64,000 bases of DNA, taken from NCBI RefSeq assembly GCF_028752835.1, contig NZ_CP087953.1:1-64000 (forward strand). Reading direction: 5' to 3'. Position numbers and translations under genes: made by a program. This DNA is from Desulfosarcina sp. BuS5 (GTDB taxonomy: Bacteria > Desulfobacterota > Desulfobacteria > Desulfobacterales > BuS5). The notes under the pieces are model-generated. The model saw nothing but the letters and a program-made list of their open reading frames with translations, was not told where the DNA came from and ran no database searches. Shown in pieces: positions 14,018-50,650 of this stretch. The first letter of the stretch is position 1. Every line of letters begins with the position of its first letter.

Positions 14018-14019
14018 AC

Positions 14020-15477: not shown

Positions 15478-15480
15478 ATC

Positions 15481-15600
15481 TTATGTGACTGGTATGTGAT
15501 TAAACAAAGCGAGAGAGGTTATTAAATAACTATATATAGTATAGTTTTATATAAATAGTACAGTATATAGTTATTTTTGTTATGTGACTGGTATGTGATT
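15481..15600. repeat. Small palindromic element between two exact 21-bp direct repeats
   Basis: Identical 21-base sequences at 15481-15501 and 15580-15600 (each containing ATGTGACTGGTATGTGATT) flank 78 bases of very AT-rich DNA. The AT-rich DNA has inverted arms AAATAACTATATA (15524-15536) and TATATAGTTATTT (15564-15576). It lies in the only sizeable gap of the defence operon, 46 bases before the PLD-helicase gene, so it could be a promoter/operator or an inserted miniature element. Confidence 0.7.
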
Positions 15601-15645
15601 GATATATTCAATTATTAAAGCCGTACTGAGACATAAGGTATAATC

Positions 15646-28008: not shown

Positions 28009-28041
28009 AATTTTTTCCTTAAAACGGGAATTTTGAGCAGC

Positions 28042-28446: not shown

Positions 28447-28465
28447 AATAAATTTTCCTTTTTTT

Positions 28466-29665: not shown

Positions 29666-30848
29666 TTTCCTCGCCATGTTTTTCCACAATAAAAAGCCGT
29701 CCGGTTTCTCCTTTAGATATAGCTGTCTTTTCCAGGGTGATTCCGATGGGATTTTTTACAAGTTCCGGCAATAGAAAATGTTTTTCCTCCAGGATGATTT
29801 TTTCTTTGGAGCAGCCTGGTTTAAGCGAGATCAAATACTCTTTTAGCTCGATACCTTCTCCTTCCGCGATAATCGTTCTTTTTAAAAAAATGTTCAGATC
29901 CCGAAAAAGGTATTTTTGATTATTAGCCGCCTTAACTGTGAAGCTGTCCGGAATCTCGTCCTGAAAGGTATATTTTGTAATCATCAGGACTTTTTTTTCA
30001 AAGGGGATTCCCTCAAAAAGAGAAAGATTTTTTTTGATTTGTTTTTTTTTAGAAACCAGCCGGATGTTTTGTGCCGGTACTTTTTCAGGAACCCCGATGA
30101 CCGTATAAACGGCCGCGTCCGATCCACAGATAAAATAGAGTTCAACCGGTTTATGAGGATAAACAAGTTCATCCCGGCCGCCGGCATGCTTTTTAGTGAC
30201 CAGAAATTTTATAAAGGCATTGCTGTCGTTTATTTTAACGCTCAGCCCTTTTTCCTTGGAATAGACTACATCTTTAATCGGGCCGTCATTACAGGTGACC
30301 CTGTTTATATCCGTGCTGCTTAAAATTACTTTGGTCGTAATCTCCGGCAGAATCATAGTATCGGCCTCACTACCAAAAAATTGGTCGGGATTGTATGTAA
30401 TGCTTTGTTTTGGAAGCTTTGGAAGCTGTAGTCTTTTTTGTTGAAAGCTTTTGTTTGAATTAATCTGTGGGTGGCTTATATGTTCAGCGGCCTTTATTGA
30501 CTCTTTAAAAATAACCTCCGGCGCCGAACAAAGTTCCATATTACATTTAACCACCTCCGAAGTAAGGCCGCTGCTTTTAGCTGTGGCCACCAGTTGTTTT
30601 GTTTTTGCTTTGTTTTCTACCATTCCATACCTGGCAACATAAAAATTTCCGGAGCGGCAAATCAGCAGGTCTTTTTTTATTGTATCCGGAAGGTTGTCAT
30701 ACAGATGTTGCAATCCGGACAAACTCTTGAAGGCGCCGAGCTGGACAGACCATGCCGCATTAACCGGACTGCAATCCATTAAGCTGATTATGGCTAAAGC
30801 CAAAGCAGCGGTGATAATTTTATTTATTTTCGACTTCTTTAAAATCAT
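29643..30848 (-). CDS. traK: SPOR-TraK fusion, secretin-like core-complex protein
   Basis: About 401 residues. A signal peptide (ITAALALAIISLMDCSPVNA) is followed by a SPOR-like peptidoglycan-binding domain (AWSVQLGAFKSLSGLQHL to about SGLTSEVVKC). The TraK domain starts near residue 155: MILPEITTKVILSSTDINR, then FIKFLVTKK, PVELYFICG and YTVIGVP. F TraK is only about 240 residues and has no SPOR domain, so this is an unusual fusion that may anchor the outer-membrane ring to the cell wall. The start is ATG 30848 with GGGAGG upstream; it overlaps traE by 29 bases. Confidence 0.82.
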   Translation of the reverse strand: MILKKSKINKIITAALALAIISLMDCSPVNAAWSVQLGAFKSLSGLQHLYDNLPDTIKKDLLICRSGNFYVARYGMVENKAKTKQLVATAKSSGLTSEVVKCNMELCSAPEVIFKESIKAAEHISHPQINSNKSFQQKRLQLPKLPKQSITYNPDQFFGSEADTMILPEITTKVILSSTDINRVTCNDGPIKDVVYSKEKGLSVKINDSNAFIKFLVTKKHAGGRDELVYPHKPVELYFICGSDAAVYTVIGVPEKVPAQNIRLVSKKKQIKKNLSLFEGIPFEKKVLMITKYTFQDEIPDSFTVKAANNQKYLFRDLNIFLKRTIIAEGEGIELKEYLISLKPGCSKEKIILEEKHFLLPELVKNPIGITLEKTAISKGETGRLFIVEKHGEENDAERDY

Positions 30849-31383
30849 TGATAAAAAACCTCCCGTTAGAAATGACATACCCAATGATATAGGTTTTGCT
30901 TTGACCTCGATCTACAACGCTGCTCCCGGTAAACTGTTTTTTCGTTCCGTTAATGGCAATTGTTTTTTTTTGTTTGTTGACATTGATCCGGAAGGGATAG
31001 AATGCGCTGGTAATCATCAGGGTATTTACCGTTGCCGTCAGATCAGCCAGGGTGTTTTCAAAAGAAGGGTAAAAAGAGGGTGTGACCAGTTTCAAGAGCT
31101 CGTCAAATTGAGCTCGGACAGAAACCGGGCTGTAGTTTTCAAGCAGGCCGATGGAATACCTGGCAAAAAGTTTAATATAATCTTCATTGGCATCATTGCC
31201 GCTGATAACTATTCGTCGATCAACGACCGGAGGCAGGATTACCGTTTTCTGGTAATGCAGCGCCCTGTAAGAAAAGATGCTGTTGATAATTACGGTGATT
31301 CCGAGAACCAGGACGACAAATTTCAGCAGCCGGTTTTCGGCATATAAATTTGATGTTTTTTGTACAAACAGATCAAGTTTCAT
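30820..31383 (-). CDS. traE: TraE-like T4SS protein (VirB8 equivalent)
   Basis: A 187-residue protein with a short cytoplasmic N-terminus, one membrane helix (FVVLVLGITVIINSIFSY) and the TraE periplasmic domain (KTVILPPVVDRRIVISG, YIKLFARYSIGLLENYSP). Its length matches F TraE (188). It is an inner-membrane component needed for pilus assembly. It lies 5 bases after traL and overlaps traK. Confidence 0.88.
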   Translation of the reverse strand: MKLDLFVQKTSNLYAENRLLKFVVLVLGITVIINSIFSYRALHYQKTVILPPVVDRRIVISGNDANEDYIKLFARYSIGLLENYSPVSVRAQFDELLKLVTPSFYPSFENTLADLTATVNTLMITSAFYPFRINVNKQKKTIAINGTKKQFTGSSVVDRGQSKTYIIGYVISNGRFFINDFKEVENK

Positions 31384-33610: not shown

Positions 33611-33857
33611 AAAAAAAATTCTCGCTTAAAAAAAGTTTCCCTCTACCTTATATAATAGAAGGGCCGTCAAATTTTATGGTCTGCCTTCAGGCCGTAAAAT
33701 CGAAAAGTTTTTGGTTTGTGGGATATGAAGTTTCATCTCGGATGTTTTGTGTCTTTTTTTTGCGAATTAGATTTGACACAAAATCAACGCCATGTCATTA
33801 TGGTGTCGTAAAATATATATTATATTGTGGCACCAAATCAACGAGGTGGAGGAGATT
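33611..33857. promoter_or_regulatory. Divergent intergenic region with repeated ACACAAAATCAACG-type motif
   Basis: The region lies between the minus-strand T4SS operon and the plus-strand ATPase gene. The motif ACAAAATCAACG (about 33778) recurs as CACCAAATCAACG (about 33831), separated by a very AT-rich stretch (AAATATATATTATATTG) that could hold the ATPase promoter. A regulator site is likely but unproven. GGAGGAG precedes ATG 33858. Confidence 0.4.
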
Positions 33858-35285
33858 ATGTTTGTTGGAAGAGTAGAAGAGCTGAAACAGCTTTTAGATT
33901 TATTTGATTTAAAAAAAGCATCTCTTGTTGTATGCCGGGGGCGTAGGAGAATAGGTAAAAGCACACTTATTCAGCAATTTGGAAAAAATGCTTCAGCCTT
34001 TCTTGAATTTCAGGGATTACCGCCAAGAGAAGGTATTACAAACGCAGATCAACTGAACGTTTTTAGTGAGCAATTGGCCGTACAGTCGTCAATTCCAAAA
34101 TTAAATCTGGAATCATGGTATCAGGCTTTTTCGCTTTTAAACAGTGTCATAAAAAATCAAAAAACGGTGGTTCTTCTTGATGAAATATCCTGGATGGGTG
34201 GAAAGGATAAAGATTTTGCAGGTCAGTTAAAAATTTTGTGGGACACTGAGCTTAAAAAAAAATCGAAACTTATACTTGTCCTATGCGGTTCCGTTACATC
34301 ATGGATAGACAAAAACATCCTGAATAGTACAGGCTTTATGGGTAGAGTGTCTCTTGAAATCACACTGAAAGAATTGGGACTTTATCATTGCAATATGTTT
34401 TGGGGAAATAAATCCGGACGCATAAATGCAAAAGAAAAGTTGAAAATACTTGCTGTAACCGGAGGTGTTCCCCGATATCTTGAAGAAATTAATCCAAAAT
34501 TATCAGCAGAAGAAAATATTAAAAGAATGTGTTTCAGTAAAGAAGGAATTCTTTTTTCCGAGTTTGACAGGATATTTAATGACATTTTTTTAAGGCGGGC
34601 CAGGGCTTATAAAAAGATTGCGTCAGTGCTTGCAAAAGGGCGTAGAACATTAAGTGAAATAACGAATGAATTGAAAAAAGAACGGAACGGACATATCGGT
34701 AGGTATATTGACGACATGACTGTGTCGGGCTTTATTTCAAAAGAAATTGTATATAAACCGGGGCAGAACAGAAAAAGCAGGCTGTGCAGGTTCAGGCTTA
34801 GAGATAATTACCTGAGATTTTATCTTAAATATATTGAGCCTATCAGTGATAACATCCGGGAAGGGACATTTAAGGATGTTGCACTGGAAAATATGATTGA
34901 TTGGGAAATCATCATGGGTTTTCAATTTGAAAATCTTATTATGAATAACGTTAGACCTATTTGTGAGCTTTTAGATATTAATCTGTCCAGTATAAAAACA
35001 GCCGGGTATTATTTTCAAAAAAAAACAAAACGACAGAAGGCCTGTCAAATAGATTTGCTGATTCAGACAAAATATACATTATATGTCTGCGAAATAAAAT
35101 TTCGGAAAACCATACCGAAATCAGTAATGAATGATGTAAAAGAAAAGATAGATAAATTAAAAGTACCAAAAAGTACATCAGTAAGACCTGTCTTAATATA
35201 TAGTGGAGAATTGGAACAAAGAATTTTAAAAGAAGACTATTTTGATCGAACGATATGTTTTGAAGATGTTCTTTCAAAAAGGTGA
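33858..35285 (+). CDS. ATPase_2 / DUF234 AAA-family protein
   Basis: A 475-residue protein of the archaeal-type ATPase family common in bacteria with mobile elements. It begins MFVGRVEELKQLLDLF. Walker A is CRGRRRIGKSTLIQQFG, Walker B is VVLLDEISWMGG, and sensor 1 is ILVLCGSVTSW. The C-terminal DUF234-type region has a nuclease-like core (YYFQKKTKRQKACQIDLLIQ, then YVCEIKF), in which the D..E.K pattern could be a PD-(D/E)xK site. The start at ATG 33858 follows GGAGGAG; an earlier ATG at 33792 lacks one. The cellular role is unknown, and a defence or toxin-like function has been proposed for relatives. Confidence 0.8.
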   Translation: MFVGRVEELKQLLDLFDLKKASLVVCRGRRRIGKSTLIQQFGKNASAFLEFQGLPPREGITNADQLNVFSEQLAVQSSIPKLNLESWYQAFSLLNSVIKNQKTVVLLDEISWMGGKDKDFAGQLKILWDTELKKKSKLILVLCGSVTSWIDKNILNSTGFMGRVSLEITLKELGLYHCNMFWGNKSGRINAKEKLKILAVTGGVPRYLEEINPKLSAEENIKRMCFSKEGILFSEFDRIFNDIFLRRARAYKKIASVLAKGRRTLSEITNELKKERNGHIGRYIDDMTVSGFISKEIVYKPGQNRKSRLCRFRLRDNYLRFYLKYIEPISDNIREGTFKDVALENMIDWEIIMGFQFENLIMNNVRPICELLDINLSSIKTAGYYFQKKTKRQKACQIDLLIQTKYTLYVCEIKFRKTIPKSVMNDVKEKIDKLKVPKSTSVRPVLIYSGELEQRILKEDYFDRTICFEDVLSKR

Positions 35286-35779: not shown

Positions 35780-35826
35780 GATGGTTCCTGTTGCAGCACA
35801 ACGCACGAATCGTTGCCTTAGCTCTA
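35780..35826 (+). repeat. Direct repeat flanking the conjugation module, right copy
   Basis: This is the second copy of the sequence at 19951-19997. It ends at the stop codon of the SNF2 helicase gene (35824). Confidence 0.6.
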
Positions 35827-38679
35827 TCCTGTGCAGGCATCGGGCGGTGAGAAGTCAGGAGCTGATTTTTTTAAAGCTTCCTGAATTTCTTTCCAGTCAC
35901 ATCCCTTAGGGATTTTTTCTAATGTTTTTGCATCTATTAATTCACCAAAAAGATGGGCATTCATTGTTTCTTGACGCTTTTTTGATACCTTGCACTGAAA
36001 AGCGTCATACGTTCCTTCGAAAACAACCGGCTTAATGATAATCTTAGGGAATTCTTCATCTGATATTGATTTATCTTTCTTTTCCTTCTTAAATTTTTCC
36101 GCTAATTTCTGCCAATAGCTCTCAATTCTATCAACCCGACCAATCTGCTGTTCTACTACCCCGGGATTCCATTCGGAATGAAACTGGATAATGGTGCGGC
36201 AGGCTTTATGTAAATTCAATCCCTCACGACCAACCTGGCTTTGAGCGATAAGCACCCGCGGAAAAAATTTTTGGTCATTAAACTGTGTTTGAAGCATACG
36301 TCTTGTTTCCATTTTCACATCACCGTCAAGCAATCGTGCAAAAAAACTGAGACGTTCAGAAATATTTTTTGTTTCATTACAGACCAGTTCCTTTAAATTT
36401 TTCTCGTCTATATTTTCAGCAAAACGATTTAATTGTTTAAAACGGTCAATTTGATTTTCATTGCCATTAAAATAAGCAGGCTTATTCCATTCTGTTTTTG
36501 CCTGCAATTTTTTATCCTCTTCACTTTCAACATCAAAATAAGCTTCAAGATATTCAACCCAGATATTCAATGCCCTGGTTTTTATTTCGTCTGAATTTTG
36601 GCTTTCTTCTGTAACACCCTGACAAATTAGATCATTTGCCAGGCGATTTCGTAATAATTTTTTAACGTCAGATTTTATTTTCTCAATAGTGGCAGCCCCA
36701 GGCAAAGACTTTACAAAATCATCATCAAAAGTAAATCTATTACGGATTGACTTATAGGTTTTACCTCCTTTCGTAATAGCTTGTTTCAAATCCTCTTTTT
36801 TAGAAAAGACCCTTTTTATTGCTATGTCTGTTTTTAATGTTAACCTGTTATATTCGTTCCAAATACTATCCAAATTTGTTAAACATGCCTTGACTGCTGG
36901 AATTGGAGGTTCTTTTTTAGTTATCTTACGATCAAAAAAACGCAAAACTGATCGGCGATTAAGGACATCCCAAAGGGCTCGTAAGGGTTTCTTGAATGTT
37001 CCAAAAATTAACACTTTTTCTCCGGTCAAAGTGCCGTTGTTTCCCCATACAATCCTTTCAATTTCATCAGCCACGATTTGGACACGAGGATGGCCGGATA
37101 AAGCGTTTTCTGATTTTTTTAAAATTTTTCGCCAATATTGAACTCTGCGAAGTTTCCCACAATTAGATTTTAAATAAAAACCTGTTTTTACATCACTACA
37201 TTTTGTTATATATTGTTTTATAGCTTTATCAATTTTATCATCATCATCATCGTCTATGTTTGATTCATCAATTTGCCCTGCCGCATACCGGCTGTCAGCA
37301 ACTTTCAGCTTTCTCAACAAACTTTTTAGTTCCTTATCTTCCTTGTCTTCCGTCTTAATTCCCTTTGCTGCCTTTCCTATAGCTTCCAGAGCGAAGATTG
37401 AAGGCTTCCAGCTATTATTAATATTACTGAATTGTATTTCTATGGATTCCGGTTTGCGGTGCGGATGAGTAGCATATTCTTGTGTTTTATTTAACCCCAT
37501 TAAATCTATCATTTCTTTATCTTTAATGCGACGTCTGCGGGTTACGAATGGCTTAAGCGCGTTGGTAAAACAATTACTTAAAGATATAAGGGTCTTAACT
37601 TTTTTCCGATTGTTTGGGTACTTGATAACTTCTTGACGGCTATTGGCAAATTTTTTAATTTCATCTTCTGGATATTTATCGCTCTCGCCAATTCGTTCAA
37701 ATAATTTTTCCCACTGTTCCGGTTGCAGCTCCATTGGAGTTGCAGTCATTGCAATTCGCTTACTATTGCTTTTAAGATCAATAATCTTGGTAATAATGGT
37801 TTCAAGCCTGCTATTATTACCTCGACTTTTATGGGCTTCGTCTATAACAAGCAGGTCAATCGGGCCAAGAAGTTCCTTGAGCATTGTCATACCATTATCG
37901 CTATGAAACCATTCTTTAAAATATTCTTTAACATCTTTAGCTTCAAGGGCTGTTTTCGGAATATTACTAAACAAGCGCCAGCGATTATTTTTTCTTAGAT
38001 ATTTAGCAGCGTTATTCATCATTGCAAACCAAATATAATTGCAACTGTTTTTAGTATCACAATTGCTGCAATCAGCGCCAATACATTCATCATCTCCTTC
38101 GTAATGTTTTTTTACCAATTGCCAATAACTATTATTATGATGTACCCCTTTATCATCGTATTGAAGCGCCTTTACAAGAATCGGCAAAAGATATCGCCAT
38201 GACTGGGAATTATTAGCCAAATGCGGTGGGCCAAAATTATGCGACAACAATAACCATTTCCCTTTATTCTTGGAAAGTGGAAATGCTAACTCTGCGGTTT
38301 CAAAAATGCTGTTATAGGAACGTAAAAGGACAGAAGAATTATCAGATTTATTTTTCAGGATATCAGGATTGGTTTTTTTCAGGTTATTAATAAAATCATC
38401 CCATTCTTTTTTCCATTGATAAAAAAGGCCGGGCGGCACAACCGTTGCTACAGTGCCGCCATTTTGAATAACAGACAGGATAGCCGCCATAACAACACGC
38501 GTTTTGCCCATTCCTACTTCATCAGCAACGAGAACTCCTTTCCGATTATCCTGGTCGAGCTGTTCTTCTATCCATCGGATAGAGTTTTCCTGGCCGAATT
38601 TCCAAAAGGTTTTCTCAGGATCAACTGTTTTGATATCCGCTAACTTATTCATTGTCTCAAATGCTTTTTTCCAGTTCAT
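35824..38679 (-). CDS. SNF2-type SF2 helicase of an uncharacterised operon
   Basis: A 951-residue helicase. Walker A is VADEVGMGKTRVVMAAIL, the DEAH box LLVIDEAHKSRG, motif III AMTATPMEL, motif V GREGLNLHKACRTIIQF and motif VI QQIGRVDRIESYW. Between motifs I and II, near residue 196, it has a four-cysteine cluster (CIGADCSNCDTKNSC) that could bind zinc or an iron-sulfur centre. The start at ATG 38679 is preceded by GGAAGGATTT, 15 bases after the PLD gene. An upstream ATG at 38724 overlaps that gene and is less likely. It probably remodels or tracks on DNA for the PLD partner. It is last in the operon. Confidence 0.85.
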   Translation of the reverse strand: MNWKKAFETMNKLADIKTVDPEKTFWKFGQENSIRWIEEQLDQDNRKGVLVADEVGMGKTRVVMAAILSVIQNGGTVATVVPPGLFYQWKKEWDDFINNLKKTNPDILKNKSDNSSVLLRSYNSIFETAELAFPLSKNKGKWLLLSHNFGPPHLANNSQSWRYLLPILVKALQYDDKGVHHNNSYWQLVKKHYEGDDECIGADCSNCDTKNSCNYIWFAMMNNAAKYLRKNNRWRLFSNIPKTALEAKDVKEYFKEWFHSDNGMTMLKELLGPIDLLVIDEAHKSRGNNSRLETIITKIIDLKSNSKRIAMTATPMELQPEQWEKLFERIGESDKYPEDEIKKFANSRQEVIKYPNNRKKVKTLISLSNCFTNALKPFVTRRRRIKDKEMIDLMGLNKTQEYATHPHRKPESIEIQFSNINNSWKPSIFALEAIGKAAKGIKTEDKEDKELKSLLRKLKVADSRYAAGQIDESNIDDDDDDKIDKAIKQYITKCSDVKTGFYLKSNCGKLRRVQYWRKILKKSENALSGHPRVQIVADEIERIVWGNNGTLTGEKVLIFGTFKKPLRALWDVLNRRSVLRFFDRKITKKEPPIPAVKACLTNLDSIWNEYNRLTLKTDIAIKRVFSKKEDLKQAITKGGKTYKSIRNRFTFDDDFVKSLPGAATIEKIKSDVKKLLRNRLANDLICQGVTEESQNSDEIKTRALNIWVEYLEAYFDVESEEDKKLQAKTEWNKPAYFNGNENQIDRFKQLNRFAENIDEKNLKELVCNETKNISERLSFFARLLDGDVKMETRRMLQTQFNDQKFFPRVLIAQSQVGREGLNLHKACRTIIQFHSEWNPGVVEQQIGRVDRIESYWQKLAEKFKKEKKDKSISDEEFPKIIIKPVVFEGTYDAFQCKVSKKRQETMNAHLFGELIDAKTLEKIPKGCDWKEIQEALKKSAPDFSPPDACTG

Positions 38680-38693
38680 GCATAAATCCTTCC

Positions 38694-40664
38694 TTATAAA
38701 GCTTTGTAAGTATTGATGCCCCAATCCTTAATAATATCCTTTATCACTTTTTGATATTCTTCAGTTGCGTGTTCAGGCGCAAACCCATTCGTCCCGATTA
38801 ATGGCTTCATAAAATTGATACCAAGACCTTCCATTTGTTTTTTTTTCTCAGTTACCATTCCATCAATCAAAGTCCGGCGCAAATGAGCTATCCAGTCAGG
38901 GAGTTGTCCTTTTGTGATTTGTTGGTTCTGTTCACTTAGAGTCTCAATAAGCGTTGTAGCAAAATGTAATGGATAATTATCAAGTTCATCCCGTAATTCA
39001 GAAAAAGTTTCTTTTACGCCCGATGCAGGAAAAGAGTCTTCTGGTTTACCCCCTTCCAAAGTACCGTTATTATTTTCATTATTATATGCGGTCGCGGGAA
39101 AGCTGATCAAAGCGTCAATAAGTTCTTGCCCAGATTTAAGCTGGATAAGCGGGGAACAGAAGGTGCCATCTTCTTTAAAAACAGGAATAATCCATTCGAA
39201 ATATTTACCTTCCTTTGTCGCGCTTAGTTTTACCCCGGAACTAAAGTCAAAAGTTTCATTAATTTTCAATTCGTTATTGTCCAACTGAATACTTTGGTCA
39301 TACAGGGTCACATCCTTCCAGTCAGATCCCACCCATCTCCATGCTAATTTGCCGGTTTCTTTATCTTTATCCCATCTCAAGGTACAAGAGTCTATAGGTG
39401 GAGGCACCTGTATTTCAGCATTGGATTGTTCATTTTCTTCGCTTCCTATTTCATCAGGCATATTTTCCAGAACTTTCTCCGGATCAATTCCAAAATATGC
39501 GCATAGCGTGTTTTTATCAGTGTTTTCCGTTTCAAATACTACTCCGGTCTCAATATTTCCATAAGTTCCGGGACCCAAAGCAAAACCTTGTTTGCTTAAA
39601 TTACCGGACCCTATATATAACAGTCCACTCGTCACGAAATAATTTTTATTGTGATTTCCGATAAAAATATATTTTGCGTGAAATGGATATGGTGTTTTAT
39701 CAAAATCAGGATGCTTCGGGTGCGAAAATTTCCAACCCTCTTTATGTGAGTGATTTCCCTTAATCCATTGTCCTGCAGCGCCGCTGGTTTCCGGATTGAC
39801 AAGAAGCCATTTTTTCGGATTTTTGGTGAGGATTTTATTTTTAATAAAATGAGTAACTAATTTTTCAAGAACTTCCGGTTCTTTTTCTGTTTTATTAACA
39901 GCAGGGTCTGATTCTTCAAAGAATCCAGATCCGCAAATAATAAAATTACGTTTTGTTTTACTGTCACAAAATTTTTTAATAACCTGAGCTCCCATGGAAT
40001 TTGTTTCAAATAAAGTGGCAACTTTATGTGCATTACTATTAAGCAAATTAGAGATAAAACGAGGTCTATACCCCCTTTGTGGTGGTTTAACAGTTTTGGA
40101 TATCTGATTTAAAAAATTATCAATTTTTTTCTTCACAGGATTATCTATTTGATAATAGCCATTATTGTCGTTTCCTGTACCCAGCAAGGTATTCCAGAAA
40201 GTAACAGCTTCGGCCATATCTTTAGCATTTTGTTTTTGATTTTCATTTATGCTTGTGTCAAAATCACAATACCAGACCAGATTAATACTGTTATTAACAG
40301 CTTCTCTTGTCCAATTTCCGGTTGATACTATAAGCCGGTAATAGTCGGGAACACCTTCTCTGGATTCTCCGAACCCGAGTAATGCTACTTTTGCATGCAT
40401 CAATTTGATTTTTGACCAATTTTTTTTCTCTTTTGGGAAAGGATTATAAAGCCAGGGCAATGCCTGGATTGGCTTATTATGTGCGTCCTGAAAAAGCGCG
40501 ATAAAACCGCTGAATCGTTCTAATACGCAATCCATAAATGCTTGTTCAGCCGAAAGACCACATACCAACCCCATAACACCTTTAAGGTTCTTCTTTGGCG
40601 GAGAAAAAATATTAAGCAATGATTCTCTATAGTTGTCGTGATCAGTCAATTGCAATCCCTCCAT
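38694..40664 (-). CDS. PLD-superfamily protein with two HxK/N motifs (Tdp1-like)
   Basis: A 656-residue protein with two phospholipase D half-sites of the tyrosyl-DNA phosphodiesterase type, HxK...N instead of HxKxxxxD. The first is MHAKVALLGFG...STGNWT near residue 88; the second is FHAKYIFIGN...GSGNLSKQGF near residue 327. The GSGNLSKQGF segment closely resembles the Tdp1 SxxNLSxxAWG motif. A 250-residue C-terminal region is not recognised. It might remove protein or tail adducts from DNA ends or cleave DNA. The gene overlaps the unknown upstream gene by 19 bases and lies 15 bases before the helicase gene, so the three are co-expressed. Confidence 0.75.
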   Translation of the reverse strand: MEGLQLTDHDNYRESLLNIFSPPKKNLKGVMGLVCGLSAEQAFMDCVLERFSGFIALFQDAHNKPIQALPWLYNPFPKEKKNWSKIKLMHAKVALLGFGESREGVPDYYRLIVSTGNWTREAVNNSINLVWYCDFDTSINENQKQNAKDMAEAVTFWNTLLGTGNDNNGYYQIDNPVKKKIDNFLNQISKTVKPPQRGYRPRFISNLLNSNAHKVATLFETNSMGAQVIKKFCDSKTKRNFIICGSGFFEESDPAVNKTEKEPEVLEKLVTHFIKNKILTKNPKKWLLVNPETSGAAGQWIKGNHSHKEGWKFSHPKHPDFDKTPYPFHAKYIFIGNHNKNYFVTSGLLYIGSGNLSKQGFALGPGTYGNIETGVVFETENTDKNTLCAYFGIDPEKVLENMPDEIGSEENEQSNAEIQVPPPIDSCTLRWDKDKETGKLAWRWVGSDWKDVTLYDQSIQLDNNELKINETFDFSSGVKLSATKEGKYFEWIIPVFKEDGTFCSPLIQLKSGQELIDALISFPATAYNNENNNGTLEGGKPEDSFPASGVKETFSELRDELDNYPLHFATTLIETLSEQNQQITKGQLPDWIAHLRRTLIDGMVTEKKKQMEGLGINFMKPLIGTNGFAPEHATEEYQKVIKDIIKDWGINTYKAL

Positions 40665-41833
40665 AATTCAAAAAGTTGATGGATTTTTCTTTCGGTTGAA
40701 AATTCCTCAGGATTATCTTGGGTAGTAGAATCTTCATTGTTTATTTTAATTTCTTTATGACGACCAAACAGATGACCTTTTATAATATTGTCGTTTGAAA
40801 GCGTAAGAATATTTCCATCTCGTGCTATAATATTTTTTAATAATTTTGCGTTGTCCTTTTCTTGTATTAAATTCGTAAACGCATCAGCATCAGTATGCTT
40901 TTCACCTTTTGTATTTTGATATGCTTTTATTTTGGTACATAATTCTTTCAATTTGTTGTTTAATTCATCATTACCGGCAAGCTTTGATTTAGAACCAATC
41001 AGCTCTGCACATTTATGAATAATTCTTCGCCCGCATTCTATCATTTCATCAAACGCTAATGCTGTTTCAATATCATTTACATAATCTTTGTGTTCATTGA
41101 GTTTCTTTTTAATGACACTTAATTCAGGCATATTTACTTTATAGCGGCTAAATGTGTTTATTAAAAATTGCCGCCGCTGTGGATTCCCCAGTTTGCCGGC
41201 AGAGTCTGCCATAAGGCAATTGCGGATAATTTCCTTTTCTTTATTAAGCGCGTCTGTTTTATTAAGCCGCTGGATGATATTTCCTGTTTTGGGAAAGGAT
41301 TTGCCTTTTCCGATCCAATTTTCGAGAGTGTTTTTTAAGCTATTACTGCCATTTTTTTGATTGAGAAATGTTTCAGACAATGCATTTCCAGCCTCTGTCA
41401 GTTCCATCGAATTAAAACGCATACCTGTTGTTAATCCCAACCCAGCCAAGGCACGGACAGTAGACATCCGATATGTTACTTGCACGTAATGCTGTTCGCT
41501 GGAAAGGTCTTTGAAGCTCCATATGTTCTTGCCATCATCTTTGCTAAATGCCAGTTTCCCCTTTCCATTATATTCCTCTTTTTTGTGTTTCCATTCCAGT
41601 TTACAAGCAAGGGCTTCAATACTGTTTGCGATTTTGGCAGAATTGTATTTTTTTTTGTTTTCAGATAAAGTAAGACCAGCCACAGCCCATGAAAATTGTC
41701 GAACGAACTGAGTCCCGCCAATTCCCGGAACAATCAATTCACGATAGTAGCGAACCGCTTTATTAAGTCCAAGGTGTAATAAAGCACGCTGTGATGGAAA
41801 CTCTTCCGGTTTAGGGATAAACCATGTATTCAT
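40646..41833 (-). CDS. Unknown protein of the helicase/PLD operon
   Basis: A 395-residue protein not recognised as any family. It starts NTWFIPKPEEFPSQRALLHL and is mainly helical, with a lysine-rich middle (about 195-330). A winged-helix-like segment around YVQVTYRMSTVRALAGLGL (residues 120-140) is followed by MELTEAGNALSETF. This is reminiscent of DNA-binding or specificity subunits, but no motif is decisive. There is no signal peptide or membrane helix. It overlaps the PLD gene by 19 bases and follows the AAA+ gene by 140 bases. It may be the recognition subunit of the system. Confidence 0.6.
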   Translation of the reverse strand: MNTWFIPKPEEFPSQRALLHLGLNKAVRYYRELIVPGIGGTQFVRQFSWAVAGLTLSENKKKYNSAKIANSIEALACKLEWKHKKEEYNGKGKLAFSKDDGKNIWSFKDLSSEQHYVQVTYRMSTVRALAGLGLTTGMRFNSMELTEAGNALSETFLNQKNGSNSLKNTLENWIGKGKSFPKTGNIIQRLNKTDALNKEKEIIRNCLMADSAGKLGNPQRRQFLINTFSRYKVNMPELSVIKKKLNEHKDYVNDIETALAFDEMIECGRRIIHKCAELIGSKSKLAGNDELNNKLKELCTKIKAYQNTKGEKHTDADAFTNLIQEKDNAKLLKNIIARDGNILTLSNDNIIKGHLFGRHKEIKINNEDSTTQDNPEEFSTERKIHQLFELWRDCN

Positions 41834-41973
41834 ATTGGAACCTCCAATTTATTTCTTATCCTTTTCCCACTGCCACAACAGATATAGCAATACCCATGCC
41901 ACTATTTATGACTCATCAGCCCGTTCATCCGGTCTGACAGCTTGTCACCAATAACCGCCCTTTCTCTGACATC

Positions 41974-44211
41974 CTAAAATCCAACAACCTTCCTGCCGGA
42001 TTGCAGATTCTTGATATGAGTTTCTTCTTCGAGTGCATCAAGAAATTGAATGTGGCTCAGTCTCTTTTTTGGATAAAATGCAAGCCGGTCGCGCACGGTT
42101 TTGAAATCTCCGGGGGCCAGATTTTCGATCCGCCTGATCTGTTTTTCTATTGCTGGCTCAGGCGAGCTTTTAAGCAGCGGCTGTAGGAATTTATTGTAAA
42201 AGATTATATTCCCGTCCTGGGTCAGATATTTAAACTCAATTTTGCAGTTAAAGCGCCGGATTGATGCCTGATCCAAATCTTCAAGCTGATTAGTGGTGCA
42301 GATCAGGATGCCACGGAATCTTTCCATGCAGGTCAGAAATTCATTGGTCTGACTTGCTTCCCAGGAACGGACAGCCCGTTTGCGGCTGAAAAGGAGGGAA
42401 TCGGCTTCATCAATAATCAGGATTGCATCTTCGGCCTCGGCCTCTTCAAAGGCCAGGCGGATGTTTTTTTCCGATTCGCCGACATATTTATCAAGAATAT
42501 CGCTGAATCTTTTGCAGATAACCTCACGGTCAAGCCGCTTTCCGATATAACGGGCCAGTTCACTTTTCCCGACGCCCGGAGGTCCGTAAAAAAGCAGGTT
42601 TATATTGCTGATATTTTCTCCACCTGTGCTTCGCAGGTGTTGATCGAATGCTTCAAGCCGAAGCATAAGGGAATCAGGGTCATCTGAAATATTAAGGCCC
42701 TCCAGGGAATAACTTTTTTCAATCCGTTCATTGTTGACCGGAGGCTGCCCGTCATTAAGCAGGCTCTGGTAGGCCTCCAAGCCAAGCCTGACGGCCTTGT
42801 GAAATTCATTTTTCGGGCCGTATGCTGTTTCCCCGGCTTTTTTTACAGCAAGGTCAATTACCCCGGCATTGACATTGTACTTTTGGGCATAAGCATTTAT
42901 TTCTTCGGCATTGAAAAAACGTTTGCACTTGTTGTTTTTTATAATATTGCCCCAGAGCTGTACACGCTGGCGTTTGTTAAAGGGCTTGAAATGCAGGCTG
43001 AAAGCAAACCTCCGCAGCACGGATTTATCAATACCGTCGATGCTGTTTGTTATCCAGATTAAACGCAGCCCAGGCTGTTCCAGGAGTTCGTTCAACCAGC
43101 CCTTGTCCTGGGTTTCACCCCGTGAGAACCATGCATTATAAGTGTTCAAAAGATTATCTGCTTCATCAACAATAATCAGCGAGCCTTCCCCGGAATTGGT
43201 CATATTGATGCAGGCCATAATGGAGGAACGTCTTGATTCCGCTTTATTGTTATCTTTCCTGGCGATTTCGTAGGCCGGAATATCTAGCTCCTGCGCTAAT
43301 CGTTTGGCAAAGCTTGTTTTTCCGGTGCCGGGAGCTCCATATAAAAGCAGGTGGGTCGATGATTTCGGTTTTTGATTCATGATATTGAGGATATGTTTCA
43401 TTTTGGCATCCTCAATCATAAAATGATTTAAAGGAACAGGCGCGCGTGATACTGATGAATAAAAATTTTCTCTAAGGGGCCGCTGATTCGGATTTTGGAG
43501 AAAACAGATAAAATCATCATTAAGATTTATGCTGTATTTGTCGGTTTCAAGTATTCCGGATTTGTTTAACTGCCCGTTTAAGACGCTATTTAAAATGGAT
43601 CGATCCAGGTTGAGAATATTGTTCAAATATTTTTTGCCGGCAAACTTGATGCAGTTTAAGTGAGAATCAAAAAAGGCTTCCGGCGCTTCATAATTTTCGA
43701 TGGCAAAAAGGAATATGCAAAGTTCGATATCGGCCTTGTTCAGCTTGAACATTTCCTGTAATTTACAGATATTTTTTTCGATTTCGGATTCTCCCCTGTA
43801 TTTTAAATCCTTATTTCTTTGATTGATCAAAGCACAGATAAAATCTTTGAATTTCCGGAGCCCGGCCACAGAGAGTCTTTTCAGCATTTCCATGGCAACC
43901 CTGGCGTAATCGTCATGGTCTCCCGCTGTTTCGGCAAGCTCTTCAAGATATTCGGCATGCCGCTGGTCATCAAAAAAATCGATCAGGAAATCTCCCATAG
44001 CTTCCATTTTCGGGCCAGCTATCCAGCAGATTATTGCCATTGTCTCCAGATTAAGTATGAAATAACGCTTCAGGTGGCGTTTGAGGTATGTCAGGCACCT
44101 TCGAATTATAAAACAGTCGGTTTTATCGTAATCCGGATTAATCCCGATGATTGCCAAATTGATGCTTCCGCTGCCACCCAGCCATTGTTTTTGTAAAGAG
44201 TTTCTATTCAT
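41974..44211 (-). CDS. Protein with two AAA+ ATPase modules
   Basis: A 745-residue protein. An N-terminal helical region of about 280 residues precedes two AAA+ cassettes. D1 has Walker A LLYGAPGTGKTSFAK and Walker B SLIIVDEADNLL, with sensor WITNSIDGID. D2 has LFYGPPGVGKSELAR and AILIIDEADSLLFSR, with CTTNQLEDLD. Both modules keep arginine-finger candidates (VLRRF, SIRRF). The layout resembles p97/ClpX-like remodelling ATPases and defence-associated AAA proteins. It reads away from the WYL regulator and towards the helicase/PLD operon. A ribosome-binding site GGAGGG and a -10-like TATAAT (44244-44249) precede it. Confidence 0.8.
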   Translation of the reverse strand: MNRNSLQKQWLGGSGSINLAIIGINPDYDKTDCFIIRRCLTYLKRHLKRYFILNLETMAIICWIAGPKMEAMGDFLIDFFDDQRHAEYLEELAETAGDHDDYARVAMEMLKRLSVAGLRKFKDFICALINQRNKDLKYRGESEIEKNICKLQEMFKLNKADIELCIFLFAIENYEAPEAFFDSHLNCIKFAGKKYLNNILNLDRSILNSVLNGQLNKSGILETDKYSINLNDDFICFLQNPNQRPLRENFYSSVSRAPVPLNHFMIEDAKMKHILNIMNQKPKSSTHLLLYGAPGTGKTSFAKRLAQELDIPAYEIARKDNNKAESRRSSIMACINMTNSGEGSLIIVDEADNLLNTYNAWFSRGETQDKGWLNELLEQPGLRLIWITNSIDGIDKSVLRRFAFSLHFKPFNKRQRVQLWGNIIKNNKCKRFFNAEEINAYAQKYNVNAGVIDLAVKKAGETAYGPKNEFHKAVRLGLEAYQSLLNDGQPPVNNERIEKSYSLEGLNISDDPDSLMLRLEAFDQHLRSTGGENISNINLLFYGPPGVGKSELARYIGKRLDREVICKRFSDILDKYVGESEKNIRLAFEEAEAEDAILIIDEADSLLFSRKRAVRSWEASQTNEFLTCMERFRGILICTTNQLEDLDQASIRRFNCKIEFKYLTQDGNIIFYNKFLQPLLKSSPEPAIEKQIRRIENLAPGDFKTVRDRLAFYPKKRLSHIQFLDALEEETHIKNLQSGRKVVGF

Positions 44212-44305
44212 TTTTTGCCCTCCTTTTTTTATTGTTTAAAACTATTATAACATGCTACCATTCCATATAGCGGAACGGCTTTGCAGTTTTTTTAAAGGGT
44301 ATAAT
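44212..44305. promoter_or_regulatory. Divergent promoter region of the AAA+ operon and the WYL gene
   Basis: A 94-base gap between divergent genes. On the minus strand a perfect TATAAT (44244-44249) stands 33 bases upstream of the AAA+ start, with GGAGGG near the start codon. AAAGGG precedes ATG 44306 on the plus strand. A WYL repressor typically binds such a shared region; no operator palindrome was convincingly located. Confidence 0.5.
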
Positions 44306-45319
44306 ATGCTGAAAAAACAAAAAGTTGAACGAGATCAGGCTGGCAGGGCGATCAAACTTTTTGCAAAACTCCTGTTTGCCGGCCGGCCGCATTCACTGAC
44401 CGAACTGGCAAAAACGCTGGACTGCTCGAAACAGACTATCCTGAGGCTGGTCGATGTTATTGAAAGTTCATACAGCGTCTATGTTGAGCTGTCTAAAAAG
44501 GGAACCCGAAATTATTATCAGATAAAGAAAAACCAGCGGCTGCCGACCCTGAATTTGACGGAGAGTGAGCTCCGGACCCTGTTTATGTGCTCTGTCTTTT
44601 CCAGGCATTTGCTGGGAAATGATTTTTTTGGCGAGGCAACTCGGGCGCTGGAAAAAAGCATTGCTCAATTGCCGCTGCAAAAAGAATTTTCAGCGGAGCT
44701 TTATGGTGTCTTTGCTCCCGGAAGCATTGATTATACGCCCTACCAGAAGACGATGCGGCTCCTTGCTACGGCTATGGAGACCCAAAAAGTATGCAAGCTG
44801 ACCTATAAAAATTTAGTGGAGGCCGATTCAAAAACATTTTACATAAAACCGCTAAAAATTTTTTCAAGCAGGGATACGGTTTATCTCCATGCTCAAATGG
44901 CAAAGGCTCCCGGGAAAAAATATATAGAACCTGAATTTGACCCGCTCCTTGCGATTCACAGGATCAAGAAAATCGAAGTTACGGATCGTGTTTTTGAATT
45001 TCCTGGAGACTATAATTTTGAAAAAGTATTTAACCGGAATTTCGGGATAATCAAGAAAGAAATCTTTAAGGTGACGGTTGAATTTTCAGGATCAGCCGGG
45101 GCCTATGTTTCAGAACGGATATGGAGTCCTGACCAGAAAATTGTCAGAAAAAGAAACGGCATCCTTCAACTGACATTCAGTGCATCATCAGAGCCTGAAA
45201 CAATCGCCTGGATTCTCTCTTTTGGGAAAAGCGCTGAATTGATTAAGCCCCGCAAGCTTGTGGAAAAAATTAAAATAGAGCTTAACAGGATGGTTGACTT
45301 ATATTTTAAAAACAAGTGA
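44306..45319 (+). CDS. WYL-domain transcriptional regulator
   Basis: A 337-residue protein. The N-terminal winged helix (LFAGRPHSLTELAKTLDCSK, then QTILRLVDVIES) is followed by a WYL domain (KVCKLTYKNLVEADSKTFYI, then KPLKIFSSRDTVYLHA) and a WCX-type C-terminus. Such regulators often repress neighbouring defence operons until a nucleic-acid or nucleotide signal binds. The start is ATG 44306 behind AAAGGG; the ATG at 44252 lies upstream without a site. It is transcribed divergently from the AAA+/helicase operon, which it probably controls. Confidence 0.85.
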   Translation: MLKKQKVERDQAGRAIKLFAKLLFAGRPHSLTELAKTLDCSKQTILRLVDVIESSYSVYVELSKKGTRNYYQIKKNQRLPTLNLTESELRTLFMCSVFSRHLLGNDFFGEATRALEKSIAQLPLQKEFSAELYGVFAPGSIDYTPYQKTMRLLATAMETQKVCKLTYKNLVEADSKTFYIKPLKIFSSRDTVYLHAQMAKAPGKKYIEPEFDPLLAIHRIKKIEVTDRVFEFPGDYNFEKVFNRNFGIIKKEIFKVTVEFSGSAGAYVSERIWSPDQKIVRKRNGILQLTFSASSEPETIAWILSFGKSAELIKPRKLVEKIKIELNRMVDLYFKNK

Positions 45320-46313: not shown

Positions 46314-47366
46314 TCATGACACTTTAAGCAGCTGATCCCAATTTGTTGTATATAAAGGTGAACGTCTCTTAAATACGGTTTTCCACCTTTGGTTGAGGGT
46401 TATACCTGCTGCTGCGTATTTTAAAGTATCTGAGCCCATTTTTTTATTTATCTCGTCCAAAGTCTGCATGAGCTGTTTTGAACGTTTGAAATCTATGCAA
46501 TGAAAAAGATTTGTTTGTATTGGGCTTTCAGGGACTAAATGTCTGAACATGACACCTGCCTTTTTGTACAAGCGCCCTTTTCTGAAAATCGCTTCAATGC
46601 CCTTATGTGCATAATGGATAAGCTCAGAAGTATCGTTGCTTGCAACAGGAAGCTTTATAGTTTCAACATTGACATAATAATTTTCTTTTTTAAAACGATT
46701 GGTCATAAGGAAAACCATTAGTGCTCCCGCAACAGAATGTTCTTTTCTCAACTTTTCACCCCCAAGAGACGCATAAGCAGCGACAGCCTCTTTCAGGTCA
46801 CTCAAGGACTCTATTGAATTTTTGAATGTTCTGGATACAGTTATGCCTTTCTTTGGGGGTGGAAAGTGTTCCAAAGTATAACAGGAAATCCCTCTTAGTT
46901 CCTGAAGCAGCCGGATTCCCGTAATGCCCATTTTTTTCTTTATAAAGTTGTCATCAGAATCACGCAGTTGCAGGGCATTATGAATGCCATAATTGTTCAA
47001 AAACTTGGAATAACTGCGTCCTATACCCCAAACATCTCCAACGTCTGTTATCTCAAGCGCCCTGTTTTGATAATGTGAAGCGGTTAAATTCAAAACACCC
47101 TCTGCCTTTACAGATTTTTTAGCGATCTTGTTTGCGATTTTAGCAAGGGTTTTGGTTTCAGCAATGCCAATAGAAACAGGAATGCCTGTCCATTGTTTTA
47201 TTGTAGATCGAACTTTGTGTCCATAATCAGTCAAATCGTATCGTTTGAACTGAGACATGTCCAGGAATGCTTCATCAATGGAATAAATTTCAATATCAGT
47301 GGTAAATCCGGAAAGGGTGTTCATTATTCTTTGTGACATGTTGGGTATTTTTGACCAACGCCGCAA
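46314..47366 (-). pseudogene. umuC: UmuC-like translesion polymerase, N-terminus lost at a transposon
   Basis: About 345 residues of a Y-family polymerase V-type protein: EIYSIDEAFLDM (palm acidic residues), PVSIGIAETKTLAKIANKIA, DVWGIGRSYSKFLNNYGI (helix-hairpin-helix) and the little finger with FLMTNRF. UmuC is normally about 420 residues; the first 90 or so, with the first catalytic Asp, are missing. The apparent start TTG 47366 lies inside the Tn3-family terminal repeat, and native sequence begins near MSQRIMNTL. It is therefore a transposon-truncated pseudogene. The missing 5' part is not on the other side of the transposon. Confidence 0.85.
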
Positions 47367-47385
47367 AAAGGTAAAATAAGGAATT

Positions 47386-50300
47386 TCAGTTCAAATATCT
47401 GGAGCCTTCTGTCAGATGAATCCCCATTGATTTCTCATCAAGATTGTTAATGATTTCTGATATATTTATAAAACTCGCTTTCCTGTGAAATTCATATACT
47501 CCGTATAGGTTTATATGCCTCCATGCTACCGGCGAGATTGCTTTTATAAAATCGGTCTCAGCCATATCATTCGCTTCTTTCTTCTTGAGTAATTCCGAAA
47601 GAATATATGCATTATAGAAAATGATAGCATTGGTGATAAGCCGGGTACATTCACTCCATATCTGCTGTTCCAGTTCTGTTTTCACACGGAATTTTCCAAA
47701 GAATGCGTAAAAGACAGCCTTCCTGAGCTTGTTGTAGGCTTCGCCTCGGTTCAGGGCCTTTTGAACATTGCGTCTAAGCTCTATAGAATCAACGTACTTA
47801 AGGATATAAAGTGTTTTTACAATATTATCCAGTTCCCAAAGAGCTTTTTTGGTTCTGTTCTTTCGTGCATAAGAACTTAGTTTCCTGATAATGGTACTTT
47901 GTGTCGAAGATTTGAAACCGAGAGAGACAAAGATTTTCAAAATGTTTTCCCACTCTTCCTTGATGAGCTTGGCGTTAATTTTACGAATGGGTTTGAGCAG
48001 ATAATCTCCGTACTGCTTTGGATTCTTAAAGCCATATATCATTTTGGACCTACTACCGAGTTTGGCGTAACGTGGTGCGAACATATGCCCGAAAACATGG
48101 AGAAGGATAAAATTTACTTGATTCGTACCATGGGTATCTGTTGAATGCCGGTCGGAAATGATTTCTGATGAGTTATTGAAGAGTAGATCAAAAACGTAAT
48201 GGCTTTCGTGTTCGTTGGCCCCAATAATTTTGGCATTCACGGGAATATGATTTGCTACCATAGTGTAAGCTGATATTCCTTTCTTCAGGCCAAAGTATTT
48301 GGGGGAGTACCGGGAGTTGATGGTGTTAAATTGAGTTTCATATTTTTGTCCATCACTGCTGGAATGAATGGTTTCTTCTCTGATATTGAAATATTTAAAA
48401 ACTGGCAACGTGGCCATAACATTACTAATTTTGTCATTGGCCTTTTTAAGAGTTTCGAGCCTTATGAAGTTGTTAGCAGTGGGCACAATCTCTTGATAGT
48501 TCATATCAGAAATTTCAGCCATTTTGGAAAGACCAATATTGGTACCAAAGGCGACAATGCCGGCAATAATCCTGTGATCTTCGATCTCATTTTTAACATA
48601 TCTGTCCAAGATATGAGTGAAAGAAGATATAAAGTCGCAGTGCTCATCAACAAAATAAAGCAAATCGTTAACTCCTATTTGGCGAAATTGCTCATAGATA
48701 AGATTGTTTACGGACTCTTCTTCCTTTTTGTACGGAAGGCTCCACTTGATATTATCCCCCTTCCCGGTGATCTTGATGTCCTTATTTTTCCCTTCCTTTA
48801 TTCGTACGTTGACGGCTTCCAGGGAGCTCTCAAGTTCTTCTTCAAAAGAAGCCAATATGTCATCAATCGACATCTGCAAAAAGGGAATATCGAGATCCTT
48901 AATCAATTGTTCCTTGTTCTTCTCCCAGTATTCATTATCAACGAGATCATCCTCAAAACTCTTAAAATTCAGACTGTTCCTTATGAATATCTCTCCTGCA
49001 TCAAGACGATTTTTTAAGAGGCGATAAACCAAAAACTCATACTTGTCGCCATTTATCGCTTTTATCTTACGTTTCTTTCCTTTTCTTTTAACTTCCCGTG
49101 ATTCGAAGATGTAGCGTTTTATTTTTTTGGGGATAAACTCCTGTGGAAAATTTTGCTTTTTGATCTGGCTTAAACTTTTCTTCTTAAGAAATGAATCTTT
49201 GAGAAAAGTTGCAGCTTCAAGAAGTGGATCTTCTTCGATCTGGCTCTTAAATTCAAGATTTAGAAAGAGTGGTCTAATATTCTTCTTAAATTTCGAAGAT
49301 TCGGCCACATAATGATTCCATTCATAGTCGGCGACATCAATCTTTGTTTTGGAGATGAATTTGGAAAGAAAAGGTATTTTGTCTTTTTCCAGAATGGAGA
49401 AGGCTATTTCCTGTATGTCTTCAAATGTCGTATCCTTCGGGATATTATCATTTATGTATAATTCTATGAGCCGCCCTGCCTCTTTGACATATTTGTTCCC
49501 CTCAACTGTGTATTCATATACTTTTTTTTTGGCGATCTGCTTTGCGTTGGCAAGAAATTGGCTCACGTAATAGAGGAAGGTTTTGGTCAAATTGTCATTA
49601 ATTTTCTGGTACCGGATAAATATGAAGCAGAGCAGATATAAGTAAGCCGTCTCCCTGTTGATTCGCTTCATCTTTTGAACGGTATAATACTCTACCAATG
49701 AGGCATAATATTTGATGTTTTCGTTTGAGATCCTGACATTAGGCAAAAACTCTTCTGCTAGATTATAGACAGACTTGAGGACTTCTAATTTCTTGATTTC
49801 TTGAGATATTTCTTTATAGCTGAAGTCCTTCGGCTCTTTTTTCAATAGAGTAAGTTCATAAAGCCCACCTTCCTCAGCACTTAGAATTTTTTCAAAGGCT
49901 TCGTAATTCTCTTCAGAAATATATTGAGAAATCGCCGTTACAAGGCGGGTCATTTCGGTCGTAAGCGCTTTCCCAACAATATTCTGCATAACACTGTAGC
50001 CGGGAATGACGACACGATGAGTTTCCAAGTAACTAAGCAATTCACGAAAAATATAGATAGGTTTAGAGTGAATGGACACAAAAAAATTGGCTTTCTCCTC
50101 CAATTTCTCTCTGGTCTCTTCTGTCGCAACACGATATCTATGCAGTTCTAAAATTTGCCTCTGTTGACTCAAGCGAGTGGGCTTTGACACTTCGATGTCC
50201 CTTAACTCATGACCATGGCGATAGAAATATTTGTGCGGGATATACTCAATGTCCTCTTCAACCTCACGGTAAGAGAAAACAAAAAACATTTTCTTTGCCT

Positions 50301-50490: not shown

Positions 50491-50650
50491 AGGTGGTCCT
50501 GTTTTCTTAAAAACGGTCGTTTTTGATAAAAGATTTATCTTTGGCCAAGAACACCTTCAAAATGTCCATTTTTATTCTCAAAAAGGTTTCTTGAAATATA
50601 TTTCTCAATTTACTATAATAAAAACGAGTTTTGAGAAAGGATAAAATTCC
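50491..50650. promoter_or_regulatory. res-like resolution site and divergent promoters
   Basis: A 160-base gap between tnpA and tnpR with inversely repeated TTCTCAAAA (about 50574) and TTTTGAGAA (50630) and further TTTCT/AGAAA half-sites. This fits the subsites bound by the adjacent resolvase, which also represses both genes in Tn3 relatives. Confidence 0.6.

What the first reader, a model, noticed from the sequence alone, without database searches (positions are those of the whole stretch)
35824..45319. Candidate undescribed defence operon: AAA+ / unknown / Tdp1-like PLD / SNF2 helicase with a divergent WYL regulator
Seen: four minus-strand genes with tight spacing (19-base overlap, 15-base gap, 140-base gap) and a WYL regulator reading away. 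Known: WYL repressors control BREX and CBASS loci, and helicase plus PLD pairs appear in DISARM and Mokosh. Inference: this set does not match those systems. Mokosh has a different helicase type, DISARM has DUF1998 and methylase genes, and no methylase is present here, so self/non-self marking would differ. The 395-residue protein is unrecognised and may be the specificity factor.
Basis: partly seen in the sequence, partly recalled or inferred. Interest (0 to 1): 0.85.

Follow-up and report, generated by a model that had tools for sequence, protein, structure and literature searches.

The report
Azaca-like defence triad, new first subunit
A plasmid-like bacterial contig carries a three-gene unit (a new protein family, a Tdp1-like enzyme and a SNF2 helicase) that stays together in distant bacteria and looks like an undescribed relative of the Azaca phage-defence system, here with an optional ATPase and regulator beside it.

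Summary
In detail: AAA+, 395-aa unknown, Tdp1-like PLD and SNF2 genes on the minus strand, divergent WYL gene. The real unit is smaller. The last three (A = 395 aa, B = PLD, C = SNF2) are adjacent in this order in 85 of 88 loci found through B; the other 3 are cut by contig ends. Their distances correlate at r about 0.98. AAA+ (17 of 84) and WYL (25 of 84) are optional. A matched no Pfam family at a credible level in 50 members, no PADLOC model in 3 members and no solved structure significantly. B has the Tdp1 fold and invariant HxK...N pairs. The set matches no PADLOC 2023 system but has the layout of Azaca (ZacA-B-C) and of candidate PDC-M27, whose first subunits show no similarity to A. The same AAA+ and WYL families stand at one of nine Azaca and one of two PDC-M27 loci examined. 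Most likely: a DNA-targeting defence system with an exchangeable recognition subunit. Defence is inferred, not shown; DNA repair is the main rival.

The parts
40646..41833 (-). subunit A: 395-aa protein of an undescribed family, mostly helical; proposed recognition/adaptor subunit
   Evidence: 50-member alignment A3; Pfam scan; AF2 model mean pLDDT 90.4; no PDB match at E<=0.001; only weak, noise-level VIA matches, some to winged-helix regions
38694..40664 (-). subunit B: 656-aa Tdp1-like phosphodiesterase (H90 K92 N117 / H329 K331 N355), proposed DNA-processing effector
   Evidence: model mean pLDDT 84.2; top Foldseek hits Tdp1, E 4e-10; VIA Z 22.1, 334 aligned, rmsd 4.0 A, model residues 10-411; weak ZacB match 5.6e-7
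35824..38679 (-). subunit C: SNF2/RapA-type helicase-translocase (951 aa from the likely ATG; listed ORF starts at 38724), motifs DEVGMGKT, DEAHK, TATP, REGLNLH, QQIGRVDR
   Evidence: top PADLOC match PDC-M27C 1.6e-19, closely followed by DrmD
41974..44211 (-). optional partner: tandem AAA+ ATPase with two Walker A and two Walker B motifs
   Evidence: same family also at one Azaca locus and one PDC-M27 locus
44252..45319 (+). optional partner: divergent HTH-WYL-WCX regulator
   Evidence: WYL relatives near 25 of 84 triads

Best explanation
The core is a three-subunit, DNA-targeting anti-invader system of the same general kind as Azaca. Proposed working (inferred): subunit A recognises a feature of foreign or damaged DNA and recruits the SNF2 motor C, which moves along the duplex without needing a methylation mark made by this operon. 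The Tdp1-like subunit B then breaks (or unblocks) the strand through a covalent phosphohistidine intermediate formed by its paired HxK...N motifs. Subunit A is the exchangeable part: three triads share the B-C layout but have dissimilar first subunits. The divergent WYL protein probably keeps the operon low until a nucleic-acid or nucleotide signal appears. The tandem AAA+ ATPase is an optional remodelling or sensing partner that also stands beside other DNA-processing cores. Shown: gene order, co-inheritance, predicted fold and conserved active-site residues of B, motifs of C, optional status of AAA+ and WYL, their occurrence with other cores. Inferred: defence function, DNA as target, role of A, order of events.
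For: A, B and C adjacent in 85 of 88 loci, the other 3 cut by contig ends, in Pseudomonadota, Lentisphaerota, Planctomycetota, Acidobacteriota, Nitrospirota and Thermodesulfobacteriota, plus Archangium (a myxobacterium by recall). Pairwise distances of A, B and C correlate (Mantel r 0.976-0.985, 73 loci, 0 of 999 permutations as high). Rare and patchy: 2 of 369 genomes of one class, one of them the centre of the search; ZacA, for comparison, 6 of 369 in the same class. A group of 12 near-identical B proteins (end branches under 0.01) spans several alphaproteobacterial genera, and BREX genes lie beside eight of them. Six plasmid records carry the triad, four typed conjugative; the window contig has F-type transfer genes. 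ZacB is the only PADLOC model that B hits below 0.01: 5.6e-7, 8.4e-8 and 4e-9 in three members scanned. Azaca locus L041 holds the same AAA+, WYL, PDDEXK and ADPRGH families, and the Rhodoferax PDC-M27 locus the same AAA+ and WYL. WYL regulators co-localise with phage-defence systems (PMC9122601, title and abstract start).
Against: No phage or plasmid challenge exists. The BREX-adjacent loci are mostly one near-identical lineage, so they count as about one observation. The closest relative L049 stands among genes that read as ordinary metabolism (my reading). Of 101 immediate neighbours scanned, the PADLOC hits shown were mostly one protein per family, and no control set was scanned. AAA+ and WYL were found at only 1 of 9 Azaca loci and 1 of 2 PDC-M27 loci. 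C is as close to DrmD as to PDC-M27C, and closer to both than to ZacC. Profile comparison of B with ZacB was weak and fell as the alignment deepened (probability 76% then 15%). A has no demonstrable similarity to ZacA or PDC-M27A. The winged-helix reading of A rests on Z below 5, within noise. Two plasmid records hold only a piece of C without A or B.
Confidence: 0.6

Rival explanations
1. A horizontally moving DNA-repair module: the Tdp1-like enzyme removes protein or blocked 3' ends from DNA, the SNF2 motor clears the site, and the AddAB-like nuclease-helicase found beside some triads resects ends.
For: B has the Tdp1 fold and HKN-type residues. PDDEXK and UvrD families lie beside 23 and 25 loci. 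A Y-family polymerase is the next large ORF beyond WYL in the window. L049 has the triad among ordinary-looking genes.
Against: Very patchy (2 of 369 genomes); on plasmids; BREX-adjacent in one spreading lineage; B weakly related to ZacB; partner families shared with an Azaca locus.
Confidence: 0.22
2. It is simply a divergent Azaca subtype in which ZacA has drifted beyond recognition.
For: Same order and similar sizes (395/656/951 aa; Azaca loci about 400-430/600-720/1056-1095 with one longer ZacB ORF). B is a weak ZacB relative. Same AAA+, WYL, PDDEXK and ADPRGH families at Azaca locus L041. A faint N-terminal LGL...PG resemblance of A and ZacA was aligned in one full-length comparison (E 0.42) and in an N-terminal one (E 0.066), but not in the other full-length local comparisons.
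Against: Full-length A and ZacA profiles do not match (probability 0.1-0.3%, E 0.21-0.73); no PADLOC ZacA hit for the three A proteins scanned (window, L002, L003).
Confidence: 0.3
3. The AAA+ and WYL genes form one obligate five-gene system with the triad.
For: Layout in the window; AAA-WYL-A-B-C in Pantoea, Erwinia and Pseudodesulfovibrio. The association was gained or lost repeatedly (at least 14 changes for 17 AAA+ loci).
Against: 67 of 84 triads have no such AAA+ in the stretch examined (contig ends hide some). AAA+ and WYL of these families also occur without this triad.
Confidence: 0.1

Closest known systems
Azaca (ZacA-ZacB-ZacC)
   Same: Three co-directional genes: about 400 aa, PLD about 600-720 aa, SNF2-type helicase about 1,060-1,095 aa. 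A PLD-like domain in Azaca is listed in PMC10952713 (passage). One of nine loci has the same AAA+, WYL, PDDEXK and ADPRGH families beside it.
   Different: First subunit dissimilar by sequence; B scores 26.8 bits against ZacB where a genuine ZacB scores 602.
PADLOC candidate PDC-M27 (A-B-C)
   Same: 470-aa unknown, 643-aa PLD, 869-aa SNF2; in Rhodoferax with the same AAA+ and WYL families. [quoted passage not shown]
   Different: A and B of the window do not hit PDC-M27A or PDC-M27B. A second PDC-M27 locus (Vibrio) has neither AAA+ nor WYL of these families.
Tdp1 (tyrosyl-DNA phosphodiesterase 1)
   Same: Fold over model residues 10-411 (Z 22.1) and two HxK...N motifs.
   Different: Extra C-terminal region, about 427-656; stands between A and C; substrate unknown.
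DISARM / BREX / ARMADA SNF2-type helicases (DrmD, BrxH, ArmA)
   Same: SNF2/RapA-type helicase similarity for DrmD and BrxH; ArmA described as BrxHII-like in PMC12458937 (passage).
   Different: No DUF1998 protein, PglZ or methylase among the operon's genes.
Mokosh
   Same: Helicase plus PLD idea.
   Different: No significant MkoA or MkoB match (MkoA 0.021, for the AAA+ protein).

Membership tests
Azaca | ZacA first subunit | tested here: not met
   No PADLOC hit for A. Profile-profile with 8 and 14 ZacA, full length: probability 0.1-0.3%.
Azaca | ZacB PLD protein | tested here: inconclusive
   PADLOC ZacB 5.6e-7, 26.8 bits, profile 109-374 of 586; genuine ZacB 602 bits.
Azaca | ZacC helicase | tested here: inconclusive
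   3e-13, outranked by PDC-M27C, DrmD and BrxHI.
Azaca | A-B-C order on one strand | tested here: met
Azaca | anti-phage activity | not testable with these tools
   Needs phage challenge.
PDC-M27 | PDC-M27A and PDC-M27B proteins | tested here: not met
   No hit for A; B hits only ZacB and, at 0.026, PbeC.
PDC-M27 | PDC-M27C helicase | tested here: inconclusive
   Top match 1.6e-19, 67.8 bits; a genuine member scores 1287 bits.
DISARM | DUF1998 protein and a methylase in the operon | tested here: not met
   Not among the operon's five proteins. The DUF1156 methylase at 11081-14017 lies in a DUF499/DUF3780 cluster.
Mokosh | MkoA/MkoB | tested here: not met
   No significant hit.
Tdp1-like PLD | two HxK...N active-site halves in one chain on the Tdp1 fold | tested here: met
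   Invariant H90 K92 N117 H329 K331 N355 in 51 sequences; Foldseek 4e-10; VIA Z 22.1. On a predicted model; activity untested.

The most novel reading that the evidence does not exclude
The triads form one modular platform in which a Tdp1-like enzyme and a SNF2 motor are redirected by exchangeable recognition subunits (A here, ZacA, PDC-M27A). The Tdp1-like enzyme attacks protein-capped DNA ends, such as relaxase- or terminal-protein-linked strands of incoming plasmids and phages, so that the covalent protein cap itself is the non-self mark.
Probability: 0.1. Interest if true: 0.88.

Novelty: new variant of a known kind. Interest (0 to 1): 0.6.

Why it matters
It adds a third triad layout to Azaca and PDC-M27, shows that the first subunit is what differs most between them, and shows that the same AAA+/WYL and nuclease partner families can stand beside more than one of them. 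That gives a direct test of whether the first subunit sets the target, and brings a Tdp1-type active site into a likely defence role. The A family has no named domain in the Pfam copy searched.

Tried and rejected
DISARM, Mokosh and BREX as the identity: rejected on missing components. PDC-M27: suggested by the top helicase hit, rejected because A and B do not match. Homology of A with ZacA: not supported. A fold for A: no Foldseek match at E<=0.001 in PDB or BFVD; VIA rows include Brr2 (Z 4.9, model 43-211), N.BspD6I (4.6) and MukE (4.3), but unrelated membrane proteins and toxins score 5.1-5.2, so these are noise level. Single-protein scan of genome contigs found nothing; the profile scan found 126 relatives, of which the tool kept 80, and only those 80 were studied. 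Phage records: no match for B. Viral contigs: one contig. Window relatives: B in 1 of 58 genomes, the window's own. PDC-M27A in 369 genomes: none, and the tool's control was silent too, so this shows no absence. Literature searches listed no paper that I recognised as describing this gene set; the listings are capped and the library is open-licence papers only. Papers: outline and passages of PMC12839542 with part 1 of 2 of its section 35; outline and passages of PMC12458937; passages of PMC10952713, PMC10121019, PMC9122601 and PMC12988326; other papers as search listings only. Azaca's original report was not read (recalled).

Rows dropped or not followed: of ten strong ZacB loci, nine were fetched with long flanks; L018, on a 5.1-kb contig, was not. 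Of 19 plasmid records with the AAA+ family, 4 carry this triad, 7 others were inspected, 8 were not. One of the 17 AAA+ loci (L063) is a weak match (5e-6). L005, L006, L057 and L095 are not in the tree. The PADLOC tally showed 25 of 44 families and the Pfam tally 25 of 113. No control was run for it.
Full report
Observation. One search lists all five genes at the stated coordinates. The overlap and gap sizes hold, except that the helicase most likely starts at the ATG at 38679, giving a 14-base gap. Pfam, NCBIfam and PADLOC find SNF2 helicase domains in C, two AAA domains in the AAA+ protein, WCX and borderline WYL in the regulator, a weak PLD domain in B, and nothing in A.

The unit is three genes. 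tblastn of A and of B against 72,556 plasmid records hit the same six records; in the annotated ones the two genes are adjacent. A profile scan of one genome per species found 126 relatives of B, of which 80 were kept. I called ORFs in 88 loci (window, 6 plasmids, 80 genome loci, 1 viral contig). With strict ORF calls, 78 of the 86 loci with a called B had A and C on either side. A six-frame check of the other ten loci found all three genes next to each other except in L098 and L105 (contig ends after B) and L108 (contig begins at B): 85 of 88. Some of these are incomplete: A in L107 and C in L107, L121 and L126 run off the contig, B in L006 is split by an insertion, and in L005 A and B read as one ORF. 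Distances among A, B and C correlate at 0.976-0.985 over 73 loci; this shows co-inheritance, not contact. Starting from A, 2 of 369 genomes had it, one of them the centre, and both carry B and C beside it (the second is the contig of L056). Two further plasmid records matched C only; six-frame pieces show a truncated C after an insertion sequence in Paracoccus aminophilus and a short fragment in Azospirillum.

Partners are optional. On a tree of 84 B proteins, the AAA+ family lies near 17 triads (one, L063, a weak match) with at least 14 changes, WYL near 25 with 18 changes, UvrD near 25 with 8 changes. Contig ends inflate these counts. The closest relative, a Lentisphaerota MAG (L049, 48% identity in B), has no labelled partner in its 22-kb stretch; its neighbours read as cobalamin and other ordinary genes (my reading). 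The AAA+ family also occurs without this triad. Of 19 plasmid records with it, 4 carry this triad. Of 7 others inspected, 5 have a WYL relative in the fetched stretch, one of them a fragment at the edge; one, Novosphingobium humi, has annotated PD-(D/E)XK and UvrD genes, and one, Rhodoferax, has a different triad.

Sister layouts. PADLOC ZacB is the only defence model that the three B proteins scanned hit below 0.01 (5.6e-7, 8.4e-8, 4e-9). Searching ZacB in 297 genomes of the window's phylum gave ten strong loci. Nine were fetched with flanks: all nine have ZacA- and ZacB-cluster ORFs (ZacA in two pieces in one) and eight a ZacC-cluster ORF, in the same order as here; one locus was confirmed against all three models. 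The Rhodoferax triad is the PADLOC candidate PDC-M27: A 1.9e-182, B 1.3e-242, C E=0. The first subunits of the three layouts show no significant similarity to each other. One of the nine Azaca loci (L041) carries members of the same AAA+ (3.4e-182), WYL, PDDEXK and ADPRGH families around ZacA-B-C; L044 has a UvrD relative and L046 an ADPRGH relative. Rhodoferax PDC-M27 has AAA+ and WYL; Vibrio PDC-M27 has neither. In 369 genomes of one class ZacA occurs in 6 and PDC-M27A in none, with a silent control. So this is a third layout of the same plan, with partners drawn from a shared pool.

Proteins. A: AlphaFold2 model mean pLDDT 90.4, mostly helical; no structural match at E<=0.001; one solved sequence at E 0.38, a chance level; no Pfam family in 50 members except one MASE1 hit at 0.006. 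Invariant residues are V35 P36 E73 G92 Y116 R122 R221; I see no obvious catalytic set. B: model mean pLDDT 84.2; the top 30 Foldseek matches are Tdp1 (E 4e-10 to 1.4e-8); VIA Z 22.1 over 334 residues. H90, K92, N117, H329, K331 and N355 are invariant in 51 sequences, which fits the HKN pattern of Tdp1 rather than HKD (pattern recalled). Residues about 427-656 were barely tested. C: the SNF2 motifs are conserved in at least 85% of 82 sequences.

Context. Twelve near-identical B proteins occur in different alphaproteobacterial genera and on a plasmid. Clusters that contain the annotated pglZ and brxL genes of L007 lie near 9 loci each, 8 of them the same near-identical lineage, so this is about one independent link to BREX. 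Among 101 immediate neighbours, PADLOC hits at 1e-20 include Druantia DruE, a type I restriction subunit, a reverse transcriptase, Hhe, TmtA and two SoFic-type Fic proteins; Dynamin_N occurs in 8. No control was run, so I claim no enrichment.

Judgement. Defence of the Azaca kind is the best reading (0.6), repair the main rival (0.22). The Azaca-subtype reading (0.3) is a narrower version of the first, so these odds are not exclusive. It is not filed as Azaca because the first subunit fails the test. It is like Azaca in layout; whether it works like Azaca in the cell is untested.

Noticed in passing
window 7354-18357 (+): DUF499, DUF3780, DUF1156 methylase, Schlafen AlbA_2 and a PLD-SNF2 fusion helicase in a row, with a further ORF at 9662-10450: the composition of a Type-2 BREX-related (BR) system as described in PMC12839542 (outline and passages).
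   Followed up: partly
window 18606-19562 (+): TIR-domain protein (TIR_2 3.1e-14) directly after that cluster.
   Followed up: no
window 33792-35285 (+): ATPase of the PADLOC candidate family PDC-S27 (1e-87) between the transfer genes and the triad.
   Followed up: no
window 46314-51208 and contig positions 65195-69017: Y-family polymerase and a Tn3-family transposase with resolvase beside the system; a second transposase-resolvase pair of the same lengths and first 40 residues lies further along the contig.
   Followed up: partly
window 25504-31383 and contig C2 (108,571 bases): F-type transfer genes (TraC, TraE) and an ORF at 98008 that reads as ParA (my reading): the contig looks like a conjugative plasmid; no terminal overlap found.
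   Followed up: partly
L143 7638-10743 and 1723-7576: AAA+ and WYL of the same families beside annotated PD-(D/E)XK and UvrD genes, with no A, B or C relative in the fetched stretch, on a Novosphingobium humi plasmid: the partner module has another core.
   Followed up: partly
L005 11983-14997: Subunits A and B read as a single 1,004-aa ORF in Paracoccus versutus, a fusion or a sequencing artefact.
   Followed up: no
L006 13661-15896: B is interrupted by an insertion carrying two ORFs that read as IS21-type IstA/IstB (my reading) on a Novosphingobium plasmid.
   Followed up: no
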